This document shows, in pieces, positions 2,715-52,350 of a DNA stretch of 64,000 bases; the first letter of the stretch is position 1; each line of letters begins with the position of its first letter. The translations under genes and the position numbers were made by a program. The DNA is taken from IMG/VR virus record IMGVR_UViG_3300032093_000012, positions 62,001-126,000 of that record; one strand, 5' to 3'. Below the pieces are notes generated by a model. The model did no database searches, was not told the origin of the DNA, and was given only the letters and a program-made list of their open reading frames with translations. Origin of the DNA: a virus.

Positions 2715-2996
2715 ATGGATACATGGTTTAAATTAATTGCAGACGTCGGCTTTCCAATTGCTGCCGCCTGCGCTATGGGATACTTTATTTTTCTAACTAT
2801 TAAATTTATCCTCGCCGGTGTCATGAGCAGCGTGCAAGGTCTCAGTGGAATCATTACTGCTTTGGATAACAGAGTTAAGACGATGAACCACGACGTCATA
2901 AGAATCGACACTCTCGTCTCCAACGCCATGGGTGTTAAACCTGACATTGACCGTATCGCCCGTGCGGACGGCAAAAACGATGCTAGACGCGATTAA
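2715..2996 (+). CDS. Small membrane protein, YvrJ-like paralogue A
   Basis: This 93-residue protein has one or two hydrophobic segments near residues 8-38 (GFPIAAACAMGYFIF) and a charged, helical C-terminus. It resembles the gene at 3535-3888: both share an N-terminal LI..GFPI.AA..MGY.IF pattern and a later D.IR motif. A strong AAAGGAGG site and a late promoter precede it. Its role is unknown; a late membrane or lysis-associated function is possible. Confidence 0.75.
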   Translation: MDTWFKLIADVGFPIAAACAMGYFIFLTIKFILAGVMSSVQGLSGIITALDNRVKTMNHDVIRIDTLVSNAMGVKPDIDRIARADGKNDARRD

Positions 2997-3063: not shown

Positions 3064-3531
3064 ATGAAAGTAAAAGATTCAATTGGTAAAGCTCTCGGTT
3101 TGTCTGAATGTATTGTCGATTTTGACATGTCAGAATATATATCGGAACCAATACCTAGTTTTTTCAAAGGATGCGCGCATACTGAAGAAACTAAAAAAGC
3201 TATTTCTGAAGCTTTCAAAGGGATTCCTATAGGTCCATTTTCTGAAGAGCATAAAAATAACATTTCTAAAGCCGCCAAAGGTCGAAAAGTTTGGAACAAA
3301 GGTCTTGATAAGTATGATCCTAGAGTTTTGAAAAATTCCATATCACGCTCTATGGTAAAATATAGTGAAGAAACTAAAAAAGCATTCAGAAAACCAAAAT
3401 CTGAAAAAGGAAAAATTAATATGAGTATTGGGCAAAAAGGTAAGCAATATCCTAAAATTCCATGTGAAATTTGTGGTTTAAAGTATTCTTCAAATGCTCT
3501 TCATTCTCATATGAAAACACACAAGGATTAA
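3064..3531 (+). CDS. NUMOD3-repeat DNA-binding protein with C2H2 finger (homing-endonuclease remnant)
   Basis: The 155-residue protein carries about three NUMOD3-like repeats (HTEETKKAISEAFKG, SEEHKNNISKAAKG, SEETKKAFRKP), the DNA-binding modules found in GIY-YIG and HNH homing endonucleases. It ends in a C2H2-like finger (CEICGLKYSS..HSHMKTH). No GIY-YIG or HNH catalytic domain is present, so it is either a remnant or a free DNA-binding protein. It lies between two paralogous membrane-protein genes, a typical position for a mobile intergenic endonuclease. AAGGAGA precedes the ATG. Confidence 0.75.
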   Translation: MKVKDSIGKALGLSECIVDFDMSEYISEPIPSFFKGCAHTEETKKAISEAFKGIPIGPFSEEHKNNISKAAKGRKVWNKGLDKYDPRVLKNSISRSMVKYSEETKKAFRKPKSEKGKINMSIGQKGKQYPKIPCEICGLKYSSNALHSHMKTHKD

Positions 3532-3534
3532 AAA

Positions 3535-3888
3535 ATGGGTGATATTGCTCAATTAATCTCAAAGTATGGTTTCCCTATCGTTGCAGCTGCAGGTATGGGT
3601 TATATGATATTCTATGTATGGACATGGGCAACGCAGGAAGTTAAACCTGTGTTATCAGAAGCTAATAAAGTTTTGATTGCTTTGATTGATCGTATTCGCA
3701 TGCTTGATAATGACCTTATTCGCTTGAATCAGAAAGTTAATATAGTCTTACAACTTCGTAAGATGGACCATGATGAACTAACAAAGCAAGCTCATGAGTT
3801 TATTGTTGAGGAACAAATCGGGTCCAAATCTATACCACAAAAAGAGCCCGAAAGTGATCCAAACACAAAACCCACAAAAGTAAAGTAA
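3535..3888 (+). CDS. Small membrane protein, YvrJ-like paralogue B
   Basis: This 117-residue protein has an N-terminal hydrophobic segment (GFPIVAAAGMGYMIF) closely matching the gene at 2715-2996, a helical middle and a polar C-terminal tail rich in Lys, Pro and Glu. It starts three bases after the NUMOD3 gene stops. The pair probably arose by duplication. Function unknown. Confidence 0.7.
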   Translation: MGDIAQLISKYGFPIVAAAGMGYMIFYVWTWATQEVKPVLSEANKVLIALIDRIRMLDNDLIRLNQKVNIVLQLRKMDHDELTKQAHEFIVEEQIGSKSIPQKEPESDPNTKPTKVK

Positions 3889-3889
3889 A

Positions 3890-5947
3890 TTACTTAGAAG
3901 TTGCACGATAAACACCATCCCAATCAGAGGGTAGAGGATTTTTCTTAAATTCCTCTACTCTTTCCATCATCATATCATAATACTCAGTCATTTCTCCGTT
4001 AAACGCAGATCTAAGAGTCTTATAATAATTTTCCAATGAAACCCAGTTCTGCTCTCTATAAAATTTAACAAAGTCAGCATGTGTTTTTGAATAAGCTCTA
4101 TTGATTCCAGTCTTTGGTACAATAGTGTATATATTGACACCCTGTGATTTGCCTTTAACTGCTAAACAATCAAGTTCTAAGCATAGATATTCATCTTTTA
4201 CTAGTTCATATGTTCTCTGACCAATTACAAGTTTAACATGATATGGTTTTGATTGACCCTCTAATCTTGAAGCAAGGTTTACTGAGTCACCAAGGCATGT
4301 ATAATCAAAACGCTGACTACTGCCCATGTTACCAACAACAACGGAGCCAGTATTAATACCGAGCCCCATGCCGAAAGGTGGTACGCCTTCAACAGAGATT
4401 TCGTCGTTGAATCTGGCCAAATCATCTAACATCTCCAGTGCTGTCTTAACAGCGTGTTTGGCATGATCTGCATCATCGAGTGGTGCATTCCAAAATGCCA
4501 TCTGTGCATCGCCAATATATTTGTCTAGTGTTCCATTATTCTCAAGTATCTTAGCAGTCATGGCCGTCATATAACGGTTCATGATTTTAGTTAAACCCTG
4601 AACGTCGCTTCCGTAATGCTCACTAATAGTAGTAAAGCCACGAACATCAGTAAACATGATTGATAATTCTCGAGTATCTCCACCAAGTTGTAGTAACTCC
4701 GGGTTCTTTTGAAGCTTCTCTACCAGAGCTGGAGATAGATAAGTTCCAAACTGTTTCTTGATTTGTTGTTTTAGTCTAAACTCTCTTGCAAAATTATTGA
4801 ATACAAGATGACCAAAAGTCATCGTAGAAGCAAAAAGTAAATAACTTGTATCCCATAACTGTGAATGCTCTTTAAACATATAGACAGAAAAAGCAACACA
4901 AGAAGATACGATCACTATATAAACAGGAACGGTCCACTTAACAGATGTTCTCGGCACTAGAAAAAGTAGCGATAATAATACTGATATCAGTATTAGTTTT
5001 TCTATTAAGTTACTATATCCTGGACGCGATATCGAAGAACCGTCAATGATAGTTTGCAGAGCACTTGCCTGTACATCATGCGCCCACTTCTCACCTACTG
5101 GTGTAGCTATTATACCACCGACACCCTCAATTGAAATGCCTAATATCACTATCTTTCCATCGACACGCTTATCGATCTCGGTAGCTTCTATTCTTTCGAA
5201 CTTTGTGTTCCATGTCGTCCAGATTCTTCCTCTTTCATCAGTCTGTATCGGCGCGAATGCAGGTACACGGACGAATTCTGGTCCAATCTCACTTGTTTTA
5301 ATTTGATAGCTAGGATCTCCAGCAGCCACTCGAATCGTTTCCAAAGGAATAGAAGGATAAAGACTCCCAGCAATATTGACAAGTAGAGGGATACGACGAA
5401 CCACACCGTCCACCTCACCAATGGTGGCGACCACTCCAACACCTCCGGCCACTTCGGCATGCTCACGTAAAGGACGTAGGCCGCCCCTCCAACGAAAGAC
5501 ATACTCAGTAGGGTTAACAGGCCCGATAGCAGCAAACCCACGACGTACAGCGTCTGGCGGTATATCTTGAGTAGTAGGTGTCTGAGCGATGACGACACCA
5601 TCCAGAGATTTTGTAAGTTCATTGTCGCCTCCAGCTCTATCTTTTTCTGAGAAAAGTATAGGCATAACTATAAGTGCTGCGCCGTTCTCTTTTAATTTAT
5701 TAACAGTCTTAGCTATATCTCTTCTATCAAACGGCCACTGGCCAAATTGTTTTACTGACTTCTCACCAAAATCAACTATTACTAATTCTTCTGATTTTTT
5801 CTCTTCGATAGAATTTATTAGATAATCAAAAGTCTTTAGTTGAAGTACCTGTACTGGACTAGGGTTGTACACATATACGACCAATAGCATTATCGCTGAG
5901 ATAACAACTGCCCAAACGCTGGTTAAAAGCTTTCCTAATATTTCCAT
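3890..5947 (-). CDS. CHASE2-domain membrane adenylate cyclase (class III)
   Basis: About 685 residues. An N-terminal membrane helix (about 10-28) leads to a CHASE2 sensor region facing the periplasm (about 35-320). Three membrane helices follow (about 325-405), then a class III cyclase domain (about 425-610). Catalytic features look intact: metal-binding aspartates in IMFTDVRGFT and KYIGDAQMAF, the adenine-selective Lys in that second motif, and the transition-state Asn and Arg in LGDSVNLASRLE. Known members make cAMP. It is the last gene of the curli operon. The ATG at 5947 is preferred; an in-frame TTG six bases earlier is possible. In bacteria CHASE2 cyclases are often paired with FecR proteins, as here. 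It is very unusual for a phage. Confidence 0.93.
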   Translation of the reverse strand: MEILGKLLTSVWAVVISAIMLLVVYVYNPSPVQVLQLKTFDYLINSIEEKKSEELVIVDFGEKSVKQFGQWPFDRRDIAKTVNKLKENGAALIVMPILFSEKDRAGGDNELTKSLDGVVIAQTPTTQDIPPDAVRRGFAAIGPVNPTEYVFRWRGGLRPLREHAEVAGGVGVVATIGEVDGVVRRIPLLVNIAGSLYPSIPLETIRVAAGDPSYQIKTSEIGPEFVRVPAFAPIQTDERGRIWTTWNTKFERIEATEIDKRVDGKIVILGISIEGVGGIIATPVGEKWAHDVQASALQTIIDGSSISRPGYSNLIEKLILISVLLSLLFLVPRTSVKWTVPVYIVIVSSCVAFSVYMFKEHSQLWDTSYLLFASTMTFGHLVFNNFAREFRLKQQIKKQFGTYLSPALVEKLQKNPELLQLGGDTRELSIMFTDVRGFTTISEHYGSDVQGLTKIMNRYMTAMTAKILENNGTLDKYIGDAQMAFWNAPLDDADHAKHAVKTALEMLDDLARFNDEISVEGVPPFGMGLGINTGSVVVGNMGSSQRFDYTCLGDSVNLASRLEGQSKPYHVKLVIGQRTYELVKDEYLCLELDCLAVKGKSQGVNIYTIVPKTGINRAYSKTHADFVKFYREQNWVSLENYYKTLRSAFNGEMTEYYDMMMERVEEFKKNPLPSDWDGVYRATSK

Positions 5948-5949
5948 GT

Positions 5950-6231
5950 TCAATATTGATTGATAATATAAGGATTAGTTGCGCAATTACTAGTACAATG
6001 AATATCAAGCGATATAGACTTATTGGTATTGCCGGATTGTGTGATATTGATGGGGACGTTATCACCAGTACTATTAATAATAGCAGTGTGAAAGCCAATA
6101 CCAGATTGATTAATAATGACATTATTAAAGTTCCCTGTTAAGTTTACTGTAGCAGTATTCATAACAGGTGATGGTAGTGTCTGTGAAAATGCAGTTGATG
6201 TCATGAATAGAAGTGCTAATAGTGTTTTCAT
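5950..6231 (-). CDS. Small secreted curlin-repeat protein (minor curlin or nucleator-like)
   Basis: The 93-residue protein starts with a Sec signal peptide (MKTLLALLFMTSTAFS). Two or three curlin-like strands follow, with Asn/Gln-rich alternation such as NNVIINQSG and VPINITQSGNTN. It ends with a segment holding two cysteines and a terminal INQY. Curlin repeats build amyloid fibres exported through CsgG. Its ATG overlaps the FecR stop (ATGA). With so few repeats it may act as a minor subunit or nucleator (CsgB-like), but that is inference. Confidence 0.8.
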   Translation of the reverse strand: MKTLLALLFMTSTAFSQTLPSPVMNTATVNLTGNFNNVIINQSGIGFHTAIINSTGDNVPINITQSGNTNKSISLDIHCTSNCATNPYIINQY

Positions 6232-7337
6232 TCTGATTGCTTTATGGTAATTATGGTTGTTCCAGTATTGTTTATTATTTGTTTAACCTCTAAACCCTCT
6301 TGAGTTATCTTAAGAGTACCAGCTTTATATTGAGACATAGTTAGCTCGGCGTAGCTATTTACTGTTTCTCTATACAATGTTAGCATTTCATTTTCAACAA
6401 AAAACTTAAGACCACTGGTTGGATTAAATTTAGGCAGTAGAGAATTAAACTCACTGAGTTCATCTGATAATAATTGTGACGAAGCCACATCTAAGAAGTT
6501 ATAAAGATAATCAGCACTAAGAAAATCTCTGTTTAGCTTATTAAACTCTTTTAAAAAATCTTTATCTAATTCAGTATATTTTAAATAATCTTTCTTAAGA
6601 AAGTCTTCATCTAAGAAATTATATCCTCTTCTTTCAATAGTTCTTTCAGTTTGTTCTACAATTTTAGGTGGTGTTACAATGATTAAATTATTAACTTGAT
6701 TCAAATCTAAGTTTAATATTGCAGAAGCTGTCGGCCTTGAAAAGCTAGTATCAACAGTCGTAGTTTCAAATGGTTTTGTTAGTAATACTGTACCCATGAC
6801 AGATGATACTAAGATCTTACCGATAACACAATCTCTTTGTATATCTTTCCAACCTTCGGGACAAGATGGTAATAGTATTATTTGTGATCTTCCAAGTTCA
6901 TCGACCGTACTTGAAAAGTCTGTACCTCTGACACCTATAGTAGCAGTTGGTGTAGTAACTACAACTTGTTGTGGATCATTCTTAGCTATTTGACCTGATG
7001 CATATTTAATAGTACCAAGCGCCATCTTGATACCAAGTTTTCCTGTTTTCTTATCACCATCATAAACGAAGTTATCAATGACTAATTTACTATGTTCAGT
7101 TATCTGGACTCTAGTATCATCTTTAAAGGTTATTCCAGCTTTTGAATTTGCTGTTGTGATGACATCTTGCATCTCGACACCAAATTGCAATGCACTAGGA
7201 ATAACCTCAGATTGCCTCTTTATCTCTGTAGGTCCAGTTTGTTCTGTTACTTGTCCAACTGAAGCATTAGTTGTGGTTGGACTTAATAGTAACAGCGTTG
7301 CTAGAACCGGTAATAGTTGTAACGATCTTTGAATCAA
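6228..7337 (-). CDS. Periplasmic FecR-domain protein of the curli operon
   Basis: A signal peptide (SLQLLPVLATLLLLSP..TNA) is followed by a FecR domain at about residues 30-160: QFGVEMQDVITT, TRVQITEHSKLVI and TPTATIGVRGTDF, the last being the typical FecR signature. The C-terminal 180 residues are charged and helical with repeated DFL motifs. FecR domains act in periplasmic sensing and often neighbour CHASE2 cyclases. No ATG is available near the N-terminus. I chose TTG at 7337, which has GGTGGAG upstream and leaves a normal signal peptide; the frame is open from 7361. It overlaps the upstream curlin gene by about 70-95 bases. Confidence 0.85.
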   Translation of the reverse strand: MIQRSLQLLPVLATLLLLSPTTTNASVGQVTEQTGPTEIKRQSEVIPSALQFGVEMQDVITTANSKAGITFKDDTRVQITEHSKLVIDNFVYDGDKKTGKLGIKMALGTIKYASGQIAKNDPQQVVVTTPTATIGVRGTDFSSTVDELGRSQIILLPSCPEGWKDIQRDCVIGKILVSSVMGTVLLTKPFETTTVDTSFSRPTASAILNLDLNQVNNLIIVTPPKIVEQTERTIERRGYNFLDEDFLKKDYLKYTELDKDFLKEFNKLNRDFLSADYLYNFLDVASSQLLSDELSEFNSLLPKFNPTSGLKFFVENEMLTLYRETVNSYAELTMSQYKAGTLKITQEGLEVKQIINNTGTTIITIKQSE

Positions 7338-7950
7338 TTGCTCCACCCTGTCTAAAGTCAACGGTGTTTAATGCACCATTTATTGATAAATCTACTTCAT
7401 GACCAGTAGTTCCTGCAGTTCCTGCCTGAACAACATCAACTATATTACCACTACCACCAACGATATCAACAAGATTCTTTGTACCAGCTACAGCAGATGA
7501 AGTATTTGTCATATTAACTTGGTTATTATCTGATTGTATGTTTACTGTAGTATTAGTTAGAGAGTTTGTACTCTGTGTTAGTGAGTTACCATCACCAGTT
7601 ACAGAATTAGTGATTGTTGATGGTCCACAAGAACCTCCATTAGCACCACACTCTAAATTTAGTATATTAGAACTGCCAGTAATGACAGATGATATAGTCG
7701 CACCATCTCCCATAACCGCCATATTCGTTACGTTATTATTGCCAATCTGCTCAATATTTACAGTGTTATTATCACCATTAAATGTTGATTTAACACTAGG
7801 TGTTCCAATTGCGTTTCCAGAACCAGACTGTGTGATGTTTATAGTAGAACCATCGCCGATCTGATCCATATAAATTAAGTTTGCCGCATTTACATAACCT
7901 GACATGACCAAGAATGATATAAACATCATCATTCTTGTGATTGTTTTCAT
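7267..7950 (-). CDS. Curlin-repeat amyloid subunit (CsgA-like)
   Basis: The 227-residue protein has a Sec signal peptide (about 1-22, ending VNA) and then a long Gly/Asn/Thr/Ser-rich region with recurring curlin-type strands, for example STINITQSGSGN, NTVNIEQIGNNN and NTVDFRQGG. This alternation is the hallmark of CsgA/CsgB amyloid subunits, which pass through CsgG and polymerise on the cell surface. It is longer than CsgA (about 150 residues) with more degenerate repeats. A Cys pair in the middle (CGANGGSCG) is unusual. Its start overlaps the csgG stop. Confidence 0.9.
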   Translation of the reverse strand: MKTITRMMMFISFLVMSGYVNAANLIYMDQIGDGSTINITQSGSGNAIGTPSVKSTFNGDNNTVNIEQIGNNNVTNMAVMGDGATISSVITGSSNILNLECGANGGSCGPSTITNSVTGDGNSLTQSTNSLTNTTVNIQSDNNQVNMTNTSSAVAGTKNLVDIVGGSGNIVDVVQAGTAGTTGHEVDLSINGALNTVDFRQGGAIDSKIVTTITGSSNAVTIKSNHN

Positions 7951-8774
7951 TTTTTGTTTTCCTTTTTAGTTGTCTCTTTATACTTCCATAACTTCTTTTG
8001 AGAACCTTGTTTTATCATGTCAACTACTGCTGCTTCTATAGCTATCCTTACAGCATAAGTTGTAGGTTCATTTATAGAAGTACCTGCTTCTAACTCTACT
8101 GATCTTGTTCCAGCATCAACAAACTTAAATACATTAGCACTTACACCAGTGCTATAGATAGTCTTTGTCACACCGCTAGAAATTAATATCTCACCTGTGC
8201 TAATTGATATTAATCTCAACATAATAGTTACTTCGTCTTTACGATATTCTTGCTGTGCTCCAAGGCCAAGATAACGTGCACCAATACCACCAGTTGCAAT
8301 ATTACTATCATAACCAACTATACCACCCTCTATCATTATACCAGCTACTATAAGTGGTGTTAAGGGTTTGGCTTGTTCTTTTTCATATACTTCACGTTGA
8401 CTTCTAATAAGTTGTCTTTCTTTAACAAGATTATCAAGACTTACTCTCTCGATAGGTTTAAAGAACTTACCTTTTGAAGCATCCTGTAAAGCTTTTATTA
8501 GTATGACTTCTCCACCTTGTGTGACAGCAGAACTTAAACTAGCATAATTGCTGGTTGGTTTTCTTTGTCCACTCATATCAGAGAATTTATACACTGCCAC
8601 TGGTATAGGGTCGCCATTTACGGCTGGTATATTTATGAGCTCATTGAATCTTTTAGCAGTAATTATTTCTGCTTTATCTACTTGATTCTCTAAATCTTTA
8701 CTAGATGTTATCTTACTGCCTGTACATCCAGCCAAAGCCAAAGCACAGACCATTAAAAATGCATATCTTACCAT
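7947..8774 (-). CDS. csgG: CsgG, curli secretion-channel lipoprotein
   Basis: The 275-residue protein matches CsgG (about 277). An N-terminal lipoprotein signal ends in the lipobox LAGC. The body shows family features: PIPVAVYKFSDMSGQRK, a region around ALQDASKGKFFKPIERVSLDNL, and GGIGARYLGLG before the transmembrane hairpin region. CsgG forms a nonameric outer-membrane pore that exports curlin subunits. It overlaps csgF upstream and the curlin gene downstream, so the secretion genes and their substrate are translationally coupled. Confidence 0.95.
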   Translation of the reverse strand: MVRYAFLMVCALALAGCTGSKITSSKDLENQVDKAEIITAKRFNELINIPAVNGDPIPVAVYKFSDMSGQRKPTSNYASLSSAVTQGGEVILIKALQDASKGKFFKPIERVSLDNLVKERQLIRSQREVYEKEQAKPLTPLIVAGIMIEGGIVGYDSNIATGGIGARYLGLGAQQEYRKDEVTIMLRLISISTGEILISSGVTKTIYSTGVSANVFKFVDAGTRSVELEAGTSINEPTTYAVRIAIEAAVVDMIKQGSQKKLWKYKETTKKENKK

Positions 8775-9205
8775 GCTAAGCTCCCGTATGGTACTACCAC
8801 TTGCGTAACACTACCACCGGGATCTGTAATTCTTAATGTTATAGTACTACCGTCAGACGTCCACTGTAAGTTATTTCCACCGATATCAAAAGATCCTGAA
8901 GATGCTCCGCCTTCTTTAAATAATTCAGCAGCGATATTTTGTGATATCGTTGCATAGATTCTACTCTCTAGATTATTCAAGAATTTAGCTAAGTTTGTGT
9001 TCTTAGCATCAGCTGCAGCTTTAGCTGCATCCGTCTTCTTGTCTTCTATAATCTTCTGCTTCCTTGTTTGTTCAAGGTTATCAATAGTTAAGACATGAGA
9101 CGAATAGCCGACGCCAGAAAAAGATGGGTTTTTAAACCCAAAGCTCACTTCACTTGCATAAGAAGCAGAAGAAAATAAGCACACTAGTAATGCTATCTTC
9201 TTCAT
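8768..9205 (-). CDS. csgF: CsgF, curli assembly factor
   Basis: The 145-residue protein has a Sec signal peptide (MKKIALLVCLFSSASYA) followed by the CsgF N-terminal signature (FGFKNPSFSGVGYSSHVLTID). In bacteria this segment plugs into CsgG and couples export to nucleation. The length fits CsgF (about 138). It is the first gene of the operon, 22 bases from a late promoter, with CAGGAG before the ATG. CsgE and CsgC are not seen. Confidence 0.93.
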   Translation of the reverse strand: MKKIALLVCLFSSASYASEVSFGFKNPSFSGVGYSSHVLTIDNLEQTRKQKIIEDKKTDAAKAAADAKNTNLAKFLNNLESRIYATISQNIAAELFKEGGASSGSFDIGGNNLQWTSDGSTITLRITDPGGSVTQVVVPYGSLAW

Positions 9206-9225
9206 GTTTTACTCCTGTTACTGGT

Positions 9226-10890
9226 TTATTTATAATCCCTCATCTCTTTCATATGTTGCTGTAGCTCAGGATCACCTATTAATGCTGGTTCCATAATAGG
9301 TTCAACTGAAGATTTTACGTACTTATGGAAAAGCATCTTAGCAGTCTCTTCATCTTTTGCCTTTGGAACACACATACCACAACCACAAAGGTCATGTGGG
9401 CATGTTATGTAGGGGATCTCCATGTTACCATAAAGATGATCTTTTAATTTTGATATGATCTTTGAGAACTCACTAACTTTACCGATAGGTTCCTCAACAC
9501 TATTAAGGCTTGTCCTACATGTCTGATGATGGAAGACAATATCCTTCTCTTGCTCAATATGCAAGAAGAACCAATTAATCATACACTTCCAGCCCTTAAA
9601 GTTTGTGTTCTTAGCAAACTTGATTTCATCCCACTGGTCTTTTTCAGAATGAACTGTTTGACAAGACAAGTCTCTGCCACCACAACACATCCTACCAATA
9701 GAACGGCCGACTACTTTACCTTCTTCAAACTTAGATTTCTTTAGAGTATCCACGGATTTAACAATGTTGAGTGGATCTTCAAAGTTCTTGCGTGACTCTC
9801 TTATCTTATCAAGTTTTTCTTGAAAATCAAAGTTGGCTGCTTCGATACTTTGCTTTGCAGGTTTATTAACATTATCGATAAGAGTATATGTTTTTTTTGA
9901 ATGTTCACCCTGTTCAATCAATACTGCAGGAACTTCTTCTTTCTTTTTACCTTTCATTGAAATATCAGCAACTTGCTGTTGTTTAATTTCAATCTTTTTA
10001 ATTTGCTTTTGTACTTCAACCGGTTCTTTAGACAAAAATTCTTCTACAGATTCTACTTCGACTTCTTTAGAACCAATTAGTCTATCAAAGAAACCATTCA
10101 CTGAATCTTCTACACTTAGACCACTAACTTTGATATTAGAGAAAGCATGTTCAGTAAGTTCTAAGTTTTTCTTATTCCAGTACATTGTAATGTATGCAGC
10201 CTGATCATGTGTATAGGCATGCACTTTACTTCTTGTAATTACTTTCTGCTTCTTAAGATCTACTTCATCTTTCTTTTGTTCTTCTAGTCTTTCACCAATA
10301 ATTCTAGGAATAAAATTAATCTTACGTGGTGTAAGAACATTCTCCATAAGATCAACACACTCATTAAAGTATTGATCATTGGCATGCATCATGACATTTA
10401 CTTTAAAACGTTGACCAATATCCTGTAGATGAAGGATATTCTTTACAACTTTTTCTTTCAATGTTGGGTGTGCTTCAGTATGGTAGCTAACAGTAATCAT
10501 GTTGAAGAGTTTAAGGATCTTCTCACTAGTATCTGTTGGCCAAGTAGCATTAGTCGTCATGCTAAGACGATACTTCTTAGGATAAGTGTCTCTAATCCAT
10601 TCTACAAACTTAAAGAAATTTGGATTAACAGTCGGCTCACCACCAGTGAAGCTAATAGTACATGCCATATCAATCTTATGAAATGATTTATAGATTGAAT
10701 AGTATTCGTCAATATGCTTCATGGTCTTCTTAAGTTCTTCCATCTCTGCATGAGCTGACCATGAATTATGCATGTATAGTGTACAATAGGTACAGTCGTA
10801 GTTGCATCTACGACCGAGATCCCATACAATCATCATATTATAGCCAGACTTTTCATTATAGTCAATGGCTGTCAAGAGTTGTTCTTGCAT
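9226..10890 (-). CDS. Radical SAM protein with long linker and C-terminal Cys-rich region
   Basis: The 554-residue protein has the radical SAM motif CNYDCTYC at about residues 29-36, followed by a TIM-barrel-like core (SFTGGEPTVNP, SMTTNA). A charged, coiled linker covers roughly 220-390. The C-terminal part holds many cysteines (CCGGRDLSC, CPHDLCGCGMC) that could bind further iron-sulfur clusters. Such proteins cleave S-adenosylmethionine to generate radicals; the substrate cannot be told. Its stop overlaps the curli late promoter. Confidence 0.88.
   Translation of the reverse strand: MQEQLLTAIDYNEKSGYNMMIVWDLGRRCNYDCTYCTLYMHNSWSAHAEMEELKKTMKHIDEYYSIYKSFHKIDMACTISFTGGEPTVNPNFFKFVEWIRDTYPKKYRLSMTTNATWPTDTSEKILKLFNMITVSYHTEAHPTLKEKVVKNILHLQDIGQRFKVNVMMHANDQYFNECVDLMENVLTPRKINFIPRIIGERLEEQKKDEVDLKKQKVITRSKVHAYTHDQAAYITMYWNKKNLELTEHAFSNIKVSGLSVEDSVNGFFDRLIGSKEVEVESVEEFLSKEPVEVQKQIKKIEIKQQQVADISMKGKKKEEVPAVLIEQGEHSKKTYTLIDNVNKPAKQSIEAANFDFQEKLDKIRESRKNFEDPLNIVKSVDTLKKSKFEEGKVVGRSIGRMCCGGRDLSCQTVHSEKDQWDEIKFAKNTNFKGWKCMINWFFLHIEQEKDIVFHHQTCRTSLNSVEEPIGKVSEFSKIISKLKDHLYGNMEIPYITCPHDLCGCGMCVPKAKDEETAKMLFHKYVKSSVEPIMEPALIGDPELQQHMKEMRDYK
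9227..9234 (-). promoter_or_regulatory. T4-type late promoter of the curli operon
   Basis: TATAAATA on the minus strand lies just inside the 3' end of the radical SAM gene and about 22 bases upstream of csgF, with CAGGAG in between. It predicts late transcription of all six curli-operon genes. Confidence 0.65.
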
Positions 10891-28936: not shown

Positions 28937-29407
28937 TTACTGTTTACCAGCTATCTTCTCTTGTCCACGTGTCCAAGCAGCAACACCAAGGATGGCACCG
29001 AATGCCATGTGAATCAATCCACCATTATCAAGTGTGATTGACTTCCACGGGATGTATGTCATGCCTTTTAAGAATTGTGGCATGAACATCGCGATGATTG
29101 GAAAAGCAACGAAGTCACAGAAACACATGATCATGTAAAGCCAGCCCATAGCTGGTCTCCACATTGATTTCATCCACGGTTCTTCTTGCTTAGCGTTTTC
29201 CGCTTTCCATTTTTCTCTTTCTAATTCAATGGCTGCAAGTTGTGCTGCCTCTGAAACTTGTGGTGTTGCGCTTGGTCTTGATGGACCAGTATCAACATAA
29301 CTAGTTTGTATAGATGCAGCTGCACCCTTTGTTGCGGGTGGTAGCTGATCCATCGCAGGCTTTGGTGCTACTGGTTCGTCGTCTAGTGTACCGAATTTAG
29401 GCATCAT
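28937..29407 (-). CDS. Holin-like membrane protein (GTA 3TM holin type)
   Basis: 156 residues: a Pro/Ala-rich N-terminal half, then WRPAMGWLYMIMCFCDF and two more hydrophobic segments. The RPAMGW start of the first membrane helix resembles the GTA/3TM holin family. It directly follows the endolysin gene with a one-base overlap, which supports a lysis role. Confidence 0.75.
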   Translation of the reverse strand: MMPKFGTLDDEPVAPKPAMDQLPPATKGAAASIQTSYVDTGPSRPSATPQVSEAAQLAAIELEREKWKAENAKQEEPWMKSMWRPAMGWLYMIMCFCDFVAFPIIAMFMPQFLKGMTYIPWKSITLDNGGLIHMAFGAILGVAAWTRGQEKIAGKQ

Positions 29408-30027
29408 TAACCTCCAAAGATTTCTAAGGCTGCTTCATAATGATGCTTACGGTCTTCAAGACCTATTGTTCCACCGTTGATTTTTTTAGTTACAGTTAGG
29501 ATATCATCCTTATCTGCCCATTGATTGAGTTCACGTGAATCCCAGAACCAACCTGCAGACCATGCTGCACCCTCTTCCGTTTCTAACCATGTAGCTGCTT
29601 CTTGTAACTCCATGTTCATATCAGAAGCGAATGCTTGATAGTTGCTTTTGCCTGTTAATTGAATAAGACCACGACCGCAGTAGCGGTAACCATCACCAGA
29701 CTCAGGAGGACCGTTGCCCATTCTACTTGCGTAGACGAGGTTAGCAATCTTCTCTGGATTCTTGGCATACTCGTTTGGGTTCTTACCACGAAAATACTTC
29801 GGGAACACTTTTACGAGTGTCTCCGCCCTGTAGTTTAAGTTCTCCTTCCTAGCGCGTAGGCCACCAGATTCATGGCCTACTTGTGCTAAGAACATTGATA
29901 TTCTTCTTGGATTATTGATCTCATAGAATTCCATTACTTCATTTAATGAATCTACGAATGCTTGAACGATGTCTTCGTCAGTGTCTTCAAAAAACTCATT
30001 CAACTGTTCAAATGTTACTAAAGCCAT
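29407..30027 (-). CDS. Endolysin, glycoside hydrolase family 19
   Basis: The 206-residue protein has the GH19 pattern: AQVGHESGGL with the catalytic Glu (about 48-57), a second acidic site in LVYASRMGNG, and YRYCGRGLIQLTGKSNY, the most conserved segment. GH19 phage enzymes cut peptidoglycan glycan chains. No signal peptide, so it needs the holin next to it. A CATAAATA late-promoter variant lies about 60 bases upstream. Confidence 0.93.
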   Translation of the reverse strand: MALVTFEQLNEFFEDTDEDIVQAFVDSLNEVMEFYEINNPRRISMFLAQVGHESGGLRARKENLNYRAETLVKVFPKYFRGKNPNEYAKNPEKIANLVYASRMGNGPPESGDGYRYCGRGLIQLTGKSNYQAFASDMNMELQEAATWLETEEGAAWSAGWFWDSRELNQWADKDDILTVTKKINGGTIGLEDRKHHYEAALEIFGG

Positions 30028-36898: not shown

Positions 36899-37441
36899 TT
36901 AGAACTTGTAGTTTACACCGGTTGTAACGCGATCTTCGGCATTACGGTTGGCTTTCTCGATAGCATCGATCCGACGATAGCGTACATCAAGCTCAACACT
37001 TGGTACGATCTCGTACTTAGCACCAACACCAATGTTATAAACGGAATAATCTGCAGTTACAGAATTCCAACGATAACCAACACCGCCGATACCATAAACG
37101 GTAACGTCAACGCCGGGAATCTTGTACTGTGGTACAACGTTTAGAGCAAATGTATTGCCATAATTCCACTCACCACCAACCTTAGTCTGTGGACGAGAGA
37201 AGTCATATGTACCCTCTACTGCGAGGAACGGAAGGACGTTCCAGCCAGCAACAGCACCACCAGAGTAGACGCGAGCATCTTCACTCAAGTTTGCACCGAC
37301 ATTAACACCAGCATAGAACTGAGTCTGTGCGAGTGTTGGAAGTGCCGGAGCAGCCGGAGCCTTCTTTGAAGGTAGATCAGAAGCCGAAGCTGCTGCTGCC
37401 GACGCAAGAAGAGCGAGCGCCGCTACGATAGTCTTTTGCAT
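36899..37441 (-). CDS. Outer-membrane beta-barrel protein (Omp25/Omp31-like)
   Basis: The 180-residue protein has a Sec signal peptide (about 1-21) and a mature start SDLPSKKAPAAP that resembles rhizobial and Brucella-type OMPs. An eight-stranded barrel pattern follows (FYAGVNVGANL, YGIGGVGYRWN, VELDVRYR) and it ends in the aromatic VNYKF signature used by the BAM machinery. A terminator directly follows. Probably acquired from an alphaproteobacterial host; it could alter the surface of the infected cell. Confidence 0.88.
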   Translation of the reverse strand: MQKTIVAALALLASAAAASASDLPSKKAPAAPALPTLAQTQFYAGVNVGANLSEDARVYSGGAVAGWNVLPFLAVEGTYDFSRPQTKVGGEWNYGNTFALNVVPQYKIPGVDVTVYGIGGVGYRWNSVTADYSVYNIGVGAKYEIVPSVELDVRYRRIDAIEKANRNAEDRVTTGVNYKF

Positions 37442-50916: not shown

Positions 50917-52350
50917 ATGACTACTTTTGTAAATGCTGTTGTTAATCAGTCTGCTCGTACTGAGAACGGGATGAAGGCTCGTCAGAATACTGCTAACGCA
51001 CTTACTGACTTGTTTTTCAAGATCGGTGCTATGCGTGGCCAAAACGTAATCCCTGCTTGGACTGCAGCTCGCGTGCAAGATCCTGACTTAGCAGCTCGTG
51101 TTGCTCTGTGGGCACGTGACGTTCGTGGTGGGGCTGGCGAACGTAAGATCTTCCGCGATATTCTTGTTGATCTCGCTAACACTGACGCTTCTCAAGCAGC
51201 TGCTTTGGCACATAAGGTTCCTGAGCTTGGTCGCTGGGATGACCTACTTGTTCTCGTTGGTACTCCAATTGAAGAAGTAGCATTCTTTCGGATCAAGTGT
51301 GCCCTTGAAGATGAAAACGGTCTCTGCGCAAAGTGGATGCCTCGTCAGGGTGAAGTAGCTGCAAAGCTGCGTAACTATCTTGGCTGGACTCCAAAGTTCT
51401 ACCGTAAGCGTCTGGTTGAGCTGACTAAGGTTGTCGAGACTCAGATGTGTGCTAAGGACTGGGATAACATCAACTTCAGTCATGTTCCTTCTGTTGCATC
51501 TGCACGTTACAAGAAGGCTTTCGCTCGTCATACTGAAAAGTATAAGGAGTGGGCAGCTGCGCTTGTTTCTAAGGATCCAGAAGTGCGCGAATCTGTAAAG
51601 GTTAACGCTGGTGCAGTGTATCCTTATGATGTATTGAAGGGTTTGTATAACGGTTATCATACTAACTATGATAAGGCAAACTACGATCACATCGTAGCGC
51701 AGTGGGAAGCACTTCCTAACTATATTGGCGATGCAAGCATCTTGCCATTGGTTGACGTTTCTGGATCTATGACTTCATCTGCGGGTGGTTATAGCTCTAA
51801 GTCAACTACTACATGTCTTGACGTAGCTGTGTCTCTTGGACTGTATCTTGCAGACAAGAACAAGGGTAAGTTCAAGGATACGTTCTTGACTTTCTCTAGC
51901 AAGCCTCAGCTGATGCACCTCAAGGGTAATATCCTTGATAAGCACCATCAGATGTGCACTTCTAAGTGGGAGATGAATACAAATCTCCACGTTGCTATCC
52001 AGAAGATCCTCGATGTAGCAATCGAGGGTTCTGTGCCTCAGGAAGAGATGCCTTCAATGCTTCTTATCCTGTCTGATATGCAGTTTGATATGTGTACTAA
52101 TTATGACGATTCTGCTATGCAGATGATCGCTCGTAAGTATGCTGATGCTGGTTATGTCGTGCCTAATATCGTGTTCTGGAACTTGAATGCACATGACAAT
52201 GTGCCTGCTCGTTTCAACGATAAGGGTGTTGCGCTCGTGTCTGGTTTCTCACCAGCGATCGTCAAGGGTATCCTTGCCGCTGATCTTGATGACTTCACAC
52301 CAGAAGCCATCATGCTAAAGACGATCATGAGTGATCGCTATGACTACTAA
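50917..52350 (+). CDS. Ro60/TROVE-domain RNA-binding protein with C-terminal vWA domain
   Basis: The 477-residue protein has an N-terminal HEAT-like TROVE region (about 1-250; DLAARVALWARDVRGGAGER, LGRWDDLLVLVG). A von Willebrand A domain follows (about 275-470) with the metal site LVDVSGSM and later SDMQFDMC. Ro60 proteins bind Y RNAs and misfolded RNAs and work in RNA quality control with exonucleases. AAAGGAGA precedes the ATG. Tandem Y-RNA-like elements directly upstream support the assignment. Confidence 0.88.
   Translation: MTTFVNAVVNQSARTENGMKARQNTANALTDLFFKIGAMRGQNVIPAWTAARVQDPDLAARVALWARDVRGGAGERKIFRDILVDLANTDASQAAALAHKVPELGRWDDLLVLVGTPIEEVAFFRIKCALEDENGLCAKWMPRQGEVAAKLRNYLGWTPKFYRKRLVELTKVVETQMCAKDWDNINFSHVPSVASARYKKAFARHTEKYKEWAAALVSKDPEVRESVKVNAGAVYPYDVLKGLYNGYHTNYDKANYDHIVAQWEALPNYIGDASILPLVDVSGSMTSSAGGYSSKSTTTCLDVAVSLGLYLADKNKGKFKDTFLTFSSKPQLMHLKGNILDKHHQMCTSKWEMNTNLHVAIQKILDVAIEGSVPQEEMPSMLLILSDMQFDMCTNYDDSAMQMIARKYADAGYVVPNIVFWNLNAHDNVPARFNDKGVALVSGFSPAIVKGILAADLDDFTPEAIMLKTIMSDRYDY

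What the first reader, a model, noticed from the sequence alone, without database searches (positions are those of the whole stretch)
3890..9234. Complete phage curli operon fused with a FecR protein and a CHASE2 adenylate cyclase
Six genes (csgF, csgG, curlin protein, FecR protein, small curlin protein, CHASE2 cyclase) lie head to tail, overlapping or only a couple of bases apart, behind one late promoter. In bacteria CsgG/CsgF export curlin subunits, and FecR/CHASE2 pairs are membrane signalling modules. A phage operon uniting all of these would let an infected cell make an amyloid and change cAMP late in infection. Possible roles: trapping progeny or cells, superinfection exclusion, or altering host behaviour. 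I have an unverified memory of csgF/csgG homologues in marine T4-like myophages. The link to FecR and a cyclase is what I do not know as described.
Basis: partly seen in the sequence, partly recalled or inferred. Interest (0 to 1): 0.92.

Follow-up and report, generated by a model that had tools for sequence, protein, structure and literature searches.

The report
Phage curli operon with cAMP-signalling genes
A T4-like virus of bacteria carries six genes that should let the infected cell export an amyloid-type fibre and make the messenger cAMP at its membrane; the gene set is real and strongly conserved, but it was already described in 2022 in marine phages, so this is a new member and the published functional readings can be sharpened.

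Summary
Window 3890-9205 (minus strand) holds csgF, csgG, a curlin-repeat protein, a FecR-domain protein, a small curlin-repeat protein and a CHASE2-adenylate cyclase. The genes overlap end to end behind one T4-type late-promoter motif, in a 167-kb T4-like phage. It is not chimerism: the same order occurs in Melnitz, HTVC008M and about 100 viral contigs; every locus with enough flank had FecR and cyclase with CsgG (42/42 and 48/48). All six genes are under strong purifying selection.

The supposed new link, FecR plus cyclase in a phage curli operon, was published by Wittmers et al. 2022 (PMC9599517): a new member of a known kind.

Added here:
- FecR is a secreted FecR-domain protein beside a CHASE2 receptor cyclase, not an anti-sigma iron regulator; such pairs also occur in bacteria without curli.
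- CsgF keeps the CsgG-plug peptide, against the published idea that it diverged from CsgG.
- The window's cyclase keeps all catalytic residues; a Melnitz-like subclade lost two.
- One Hyphomonas MAG has the module on a chromosomal contig, nested inside the phage clade.
- An HK97-type phage carries it too.

Most likely function (inferred): late export of curlin fibres with envelope-coupled cAMP signalling.

The parts
9227..9234 (-). T4-type late promoter motif TATAAATA, 22 bases upstream of the csgF start codon
   Evidence: enriched only before csgF in relatives (28/98 vs 1.8 expected)
8768..9205 (-). csgF: secreted CsgF-family protein, signal peptide, conserved N-terminal FxFxNPxFxG plug motif
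   Evidence: Pfam CsgF 8e-18; profile match to PDB CsgF 6l7a over the N-terminal segment; motif in 123/134 viral homologues
7947..8774 (-). csgG: outer-membrane curli secretion channel lipoprotein (lipobox LAGC)
   Evidence: Pfam CsgG 2e-51; profile match to PDB CsgG 3x2r 3e-63; lipobox in 129/134 viral homologues
7267..7950 (-). curlin-1: secreted curlin-repeat protein, 227 aa, probable fibre subunit
   Evidence: repeat motifs against shuffles P<0.0005; AlphaFold2 all-beta model, mean pLDDT 85; Pfam Curlin_rpt only 0.003
6228..7361 (-). FecR-domain protein: N-terminal signal/anchor, FecR domain 66-154, low-confidence linker, C-terminal beta segment with curlin-like motifs; start codon uncertain
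   Evidence: Pfam FecR 6e-12; AlphaFold2 model matches the PupR periplasmic signalling domain 6ovk; weak profile similarity of the C-terminus to curlins
5950..6231 (-). curlin-2: small secreted curlin-repeat protein, 93 aa, C-terminus with two cysteines and final INQY
   Evidence: motif shuffles; Pfam Curlin_rpt 0.04 only; length of homologues varies from about 90 to 630 aa
3890..5953 (-). CHASE2 receptor adenylate cyclase: N-terminal TM, periplasmic CHASE2, TM segments, cytosolic class III cyclase with all six catalytic residues
   Evidence: Pfam CHASE2 2e-36 and Guanylate_cyc 1e-20; catalytic set D-K-D-D-N-R; hydrophobic segments; PDB class III cyclases 1e-43

Best explanation
It is a phage-borne type VIII (curli) secretion module with its own envelope-signalling pair. 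Late in infection one transcript makes: CsgG, an outer-membrane channel; CsgF, which plugs into it and anchors or nucleates the fibre; two secreted curlin-repeat proteins that leave through the channel and form an amyloid-like fibre on the infected cell; a secreted FecR-domain protein in the periplasm or at the channel; and a membrane CHASE2 cyclase whose periplasmic domain reads the FecR protein or the secretion state and makes cAMP in the host cytoplasm. Shown by sequence: the families, order, late-promoter motif, conservation, secretion signals, intact cyclase catalytic residues and CsgF plug motif. Inferred: that the fibre forms, that FecR is the ligand or partner of CHASE2, that cAMP rises, and that the benefit is a coated or aggregated infected cell (exclusion of other phages, or keeping cells near the burst).
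For: Family matches. Invariant order, with FecR and cyclase obligately linked to CsgG in 42/42 and 48/48 relatives that have enough flank. dN/dS about 0.04-0.14 for all six genes against the closest relatives. Late-promoter motif only before csgF. The CsgF segment that matches solved CsgF (6l7a) is its N-terminal segment, which binds CsgG in E. coli. Curlin-1 is a confident all-beta model. FecR lacks an anti-sigma region and models like a periplasmic signalling domain. FecR and CHASE2-type cyclase genes lie side by side in many bacteria without curli and in Campylobacterota (PMC9239204).
Against: No CsgE gate in the record and no phage cNMP-binding effector, so cAMP would have to act through host proteins. 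Curlin Pfam scores are below cut-off and the fold search of curlin-1 found no significant solved homologue. Buchholz et al. saw no clumping of Melnitz-infected cells (PMC9004378). In 11 of 82 distinct relatives the cyclase lacks one or both of the adenine-binding Asp and the catalytic Asn, so cAMP synthesis may not be the essential output everywhere.
Confidence: 0.6

Rival explanations
1. The CsgG/CsgF channel has been repurposed as a pore (pinholin- or secretin-like) that times lysis, and the curlins are accessory (Buchholz et al. 2022).
For: Late-promoter motif; in the HK97-type phage L150 the module lies between an endolysin-like gene and the terminase; Melnitz-infected cells showed no clumping.
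Against: Curlins are kept in 42/42 loci under purifying selection; CsgF keeps the CsgG-plug motif; CsgG sits in the outer membrane, whereas holins act on the inner membrane; the phage has its own endolysin-like gene 29407-30027 and holin-like genes next to the module.
Confidence: 0.12
2. The channel serves uptake of nutrients or siderophores, with FecR as an iron-related regulator (offered in PMC9599517 and PMC7029224).
For: CsgG without the CsgE gate could be leaky; the FecR name comes from iron-citrate signalling.
Against: This FecR protein has no anti-sigma part, no FecI or FecA lies beside it, and FecR/CHASE2 pairs occur without iron genes. Uptake does not explain the curlins and CsgF.
Confidence: 0.06
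3. The FecR/CHASE2 cyclase is the main payload: cAMP made late reprograms host metabolism or motility, and the fibre only supplies the signal.
For: All catalytic residues intact in the window and 71/82 relatives; obligate linkage to curli genes.
Against: A subclade keeps the gene but has lost two catalytic residues; no cAMP effector in the phage.
Confidence: 0.15
4. Assembly chimera or host DNA captured in the contig.
For: Same family set occurs in one bacterial chromosome contig.
Against: Identical or near-identical module in independent contigs (L004, L006, L008), in cultured complete phage genomes, flanked by T4-like genes.
Confidence: 0.01

Closest known systems
Pelagiphage T8SS module (Wittmers et al. 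2022, PMC9599517)
   Same: CsgF, CsgG, curlin, FecR, second curlin, adenylate cyclase in conserved order; wide in marine myo- and podophages; late-type phage context
   Different: Here no histidine kinase precedes csgF (a radical SAM gene does, in the closest clade only); here the cyclase is identified as a CHASE2 receptor and FecR as a secreted, non-anti-sigma protein; paper states AC and FecR are not in bacterial curli operons, whereas one Hyphomonas contig has them
Methylophilales phage Melnitz and Pelagibacter phage HTVC008M curli regions (MZ577098, NC_020484; PMC9004378)
   Same: Same six genes, same order, proteins 36-48% identical where aligned (CsgF, CsgG, FecR, cyclase)
   Different: Curlin-2 is much longer there (338 and 441 aa against 93); Melnitz cyclase has lost the adenine-binding Asp and catalytic Asn; papers describe the module as incomplete and suggest CsgF diverged
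E. coli curli (csg) type VIII secretion system
   Same: CsgG channel, CsgF with plug peptide, curlin-repeat substrates
   Different: No CsgE, no CsgC or CsgD beside it; adds FecR and CHASE2 cyclase; curlin repeats degenerate
Bacterial CHASE2 adenylate cyclase / FecR-domain gene clusters (e.g. Campylobacterota, PMC9239204)
   Same: CHASE2 class III cyclase next to a FecR-domain envelope protein
   Different: No phosphodiesterase or TPR gene here; coupled to curli genes
Hyphomonas sp. TMED17 chromosomal locus (L167)
   Same: csgF-csgG-curlin-FecR-CHASE2 cyclase; cyclase 41% identical
   Different: One long curlin instead of two; bacterial flanking genes; CsgG branches inside the phage clade

Membership tests
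Phage T8SS (curli) module as in PMC9599517 | CsgF, CsgG and curlin-repeat gene adjacent on one strand | tested here: met
Phage T8SS (curli) module as in PMC9599517 | FecR after curlin, then second curlin and adenylate cyclase | tested here: met
Phage T8SS (curli) module as in PMC9599517 | Histidine kinase directly before csgF (podophage form) | tested here: not met
   the gene before csgF is a radical SAM protein; this feature is stated for the podophages, not for the myophages
Functional type VIII secretion | CsgG fold family with lipoprotein signal | tested here: met
Functional type VIII secretion | CsgF keeps the CsgG-binding N-terminal peptide | tested here: met
   (sequence only)
Functional type VIII secretion | CsgE gate | tested here: not met
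   no PF10627 match in the record; the record may be incomplete
Functional type VIII secretion | Substrate forms amyloid | not testable with these tools
   needs Congo red, ThT or fibre structure
Curlin family (Pfam PF07012) | Repeat match above the curated cut-off | tested here: inconclusive
   17.8 and 14.3 bits against 20.7; motif shuffles significant
FecR anti-sigma regulators | Cytoplasmic anti-sigma N-terminal domain and neighbouring FecI/FecA | tested here: not met
   only a 25-residue signal/anchor helix before the FecR domain; no FecI/FecA neighbours
CHASE2 receptor adenylate cyclase | CHASE2 domain plus class III cyclase domain with catalytic residues | tested here: met
CHASE2 receptor adenylate cyclase | cAMP synthesis | not testable with these tools
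   needs an enzyme assay

The most novel reading that the evidence does not exclude
The six genes form a closed circuit: the secreted FecR protein, whose C-terminus resembles a curlin strand, reports curlin export or fibre growth to the CHASE2 cyclase, so that the infected cell couples amyloid assembly at its surface to cytoplasmic cAMP; phages spread this circuit and have delivered it at least once to a bacterial chromosome.
Probability: 0.2. Interest if true: 0.75.

Novelty: new member of a known kind. Interest (0 to 1): 0.4.

Why it matters
If the module works, lytic phages build an extracellular amyloid and make a second messenger in hosts that lack curli, which bears on aggregation, superinfection and gene exchange of abundant marine bacteria. 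The work here turns a vague 'FecR iron regulator plus cyclase' annotation into a specific, testable signalling pair and argues against the published view that phage CsgF no longer serves CsgG. The window itself adds one more phage lineage to a published system.

Tried and rejected
Chimerism: rejected by independent contigs and cultured phages. FecR as anti-sigma factor: rejected (no anti-sigma domain). A bacterial source module: CsgG scan of about 85,000 species genomes returned mostly ordinary curli loci without FecR/cyclase; apparent bacterial copies in L190 and L207 sit in T4-like contigs wrongly binned (L190 read; the others judged by gene content and tree position); only L167 has bacterial flanks, and it nests inside the phage clade, so the direction of transfer is unresolved. 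CRP-type effector in the phage: none. Solved homologues of curlin-1 by fold: none significant. Curlin-like C-terminus of FecR: hhalign P about 0.002 against 0.14-0.89 for five control segments but probability only 12-14%, so kept as a hint.
Full report
The observation. Six head-to-tail ORFs lie at 3890-9205 on the minus strand. Pfam finds CsgF, CsgG, FecR, CHASE2 plus a class III nucleotide cyclase, all over the curated cut-offs, and weak curlin-repeat matches in the two remaining proteins. The curlin assignment is supported by repeat motifs: in curlin-1 the patterns G..N.[ILVTA].[ILVFM] and [ILVF].[ILVFM].[QE].G occur 7 and 5 times against shuffled means of 0.40 and 0.08, and the AlphaFold2 model of curlin-1 is a series of beta strands with mean pLDDT 85, although no solved structure matches it significantly. 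The contig is a 167,475-base virus record with a T4-type gp23 capsid gene (E 1.5e-152) and a T4-like DNA polymerase nearest to cyanomyophages at about 50% identity.

Operon and expression. Adjacent genes overlap by 4-7 bases, except FecR, whose start is uncertain. TATAAATA, the T4 late-promoter motif, lies 22 bases before the csgF start. In the window alone this motif is only mildly enriched (13 against 6.2 expected), but in relatives it is found before csgF in 28 of 98 distinct upstream regions (1.8 expected) and before none of csgG, curlin-1, FecR or curlin-2. One late transcript is therefore the likely mode of expression; this is inferred from sequence.

Conservation. Scans of viral contigs with CsgG and with the cyclase gave 158 loci. 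Gene order csgF-csgG-curlin-FecR-(curlin)-cyclase is kept: 87 loci with six genes and 16 lacking the second curlin gene, the rest mostly cut by contig ends; in two loci the cyclase lies upstream instead. Among loci with enough flank, 42/42 found by CsgG have FecR and cyclase, and 48/48 found by cyclase have CsgG, CsgF and FecR. Only the 80 best matches per scan were examined, so this describes the nearer relatives. All six genes show dN/dS of about 0.04-0.14 against the closest relatives L006 and L008. The module also occurs in an HK97-type phage (L150: fused protease-capsid, portal and terminase genes), so it is not confined to T4-like phages.

What the parts say about mechanism. CsgG matches solved CsgG over its length and carries a lipobox in 129 of 134 viral homologues. 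CsgF matches solved CsgF only over its N-terminal segment, the part that inserts into CsgG in E. coli (established knowledge of the 6l7a-type complexes), and the motif FxFxNPxFxG is present in 123 of 134 viral homologues. This argues against the suggestion in PMC9004378 that phage CsgF no longer pairs with CsgG. The FecR protein has an N-terminal hydrophobic helix, a FecR domain that models like the periplasmic signalling domain of PupR, a low-confidence linker and a C-terminal beta segment; it has no anti-sigma domain. Its conserved C-terminus (LxIxQ...GTTxITIxQxN) weakly resembles curlin repeats. The cyclase has a hydrophobic N-terminus, CHASE2 and further hydrophobic segments before the cyclase domain, the topology expected of a receptor cyclase with an extracytoplasmic sensor. 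It keeps both metal-binding Asp, the substrate Lys, the adenine Asp and the transition-state Asn and Arg; 11 of 82 distinct relatives, Melnitz among them, lack the adenine Asp, and 10 of these also lack the Asn.

FecR and CHASE2 as a pair. Of 30 FecR loci from genomes of the order that contains Hyphomonas, each read with about 1.5 kb of flank, ten (the TMED17 locus included) have a match to the CHASE2-cyclase profile nearby. Campylobacterota CHASE2 cyclases are also reported in clusters with a FecR-domain outer-membrane protein (PMC9239204). FecR next to a CHASE2 cyclase is thus a bacterial signalling neighbourhood of its own, which the phage module couples to curli secretion. That FecR is the CHASE2 partner is inferred from this neighbourhood, not shown.

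Origin. The genome scan with CsgG returned mainly ordinary bacterial curli loci with no FecR or cyclase match beside them. One exception has bacterial flanks: Hyphomonas sp. TMED17, a 705-kb contig with csgF-csgG-curlin-FecR-CHASE2 cyclase among CoA-transferase, TonB-receptor and FAA-hydrolase genes. No other member among 105 genomes of its family has a FecR of this type, and it is the extreme outlier among 385 genomes of its class. In the CsgG tree it sits inside the phage clade, sister to phages L139 and L150 (99/95), while ordinary bacterial CsgG form a separate group; its branch is long, so the position carries some doubt. This fits transfer from phage to bacterium, or an origin in bacteria not sampled. 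PMC9599517 argued for an alphaproteobacterial origin and stated that FecR and cyclase are not part of bacterial curli operons; the TMED17 locus is an exception to that statement.

Comparison with what is known. PMC7029224 (2020) reported csgF/csgG and a curli-associated gene in pelagimyophages and proposed 'sibling capture'. PMC9004378 (2022) described Melnitz and proposed a pinholin or secretin role. PMC9599517 (2022) described the full set including FecR, second curlin and adenylate cyclase, in myo- and podophages, with metatranscriptome support. Nothing later on this topic, and no experimental test, was found in the held library. The window is a new member of that published kind.

Verdict. 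Observation confirmed; the main novelty claim is not, because it was published. The most likely reading is late export of a curlin fibre coupled to envelope cAMP signalling (0.6). The refinements above make the published hypotheses testable but are themselves sequence-based.

Noticed in passing
window 2715-2996 (+), 3064-3531 (+), 3535-3888 (+): Two related small membrane proteins (both phrog_18771; the second has a weak holin match over its first 21 residues) flank a NUMOD3/zinc-finger homing-endonuclease-like ORF, convergent with the curli module; TATAAATA motifs at 2682 and 2999.
   Followed up: partly
window 36899-37441 (-): Phage-encoded outer-membrane beta-barrel protein with signal peptide (OMP_b-brl 1e-9); a candidate surface or superinfection-exclusion protein.
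   Followed up: partly
window 50917-52350 (+): DUF7788/DUF2828 protein directly after an array of 15 tRNA genes.
   Followed up: partly
window 9226-10890 (-): A 554-aa radical SAM protein directly upstream of csgF, found at that place only in the closest relatives.
   Followed up: partly
L002:11667-13718 and relatives (L026, L028, L038, L046, L051, L060, L061, L072, L079): Melnitz-like cyclases have replaced the adenine-binding Asp and the transition-state Asn while keeping the other catalytic residues: possible loss or change of activity.
   Followed up: partly
L003:10061-11386: HTVC008M curlin-2 has an extra N-terminal domain (PA14-like by eye) before its curlin repeats; curlin-2 length varies from about 90 to over 600 aa among phages.
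   Followed up: no
L162, L163, L166, L190, L207: Probable phage contigs with this module binned into Rhodobacteraceae, Planctomycetota and Bacteroidota MAGs; L190 clearly carries T4-like genes.
   Followed up: partly
L150:3712-12043: An HK97-type phage carries the module between an M15/GH19-like endolysin gene and the terminase, with a GAF-like protein upstream (domains read by eye).
   Followed up: partly
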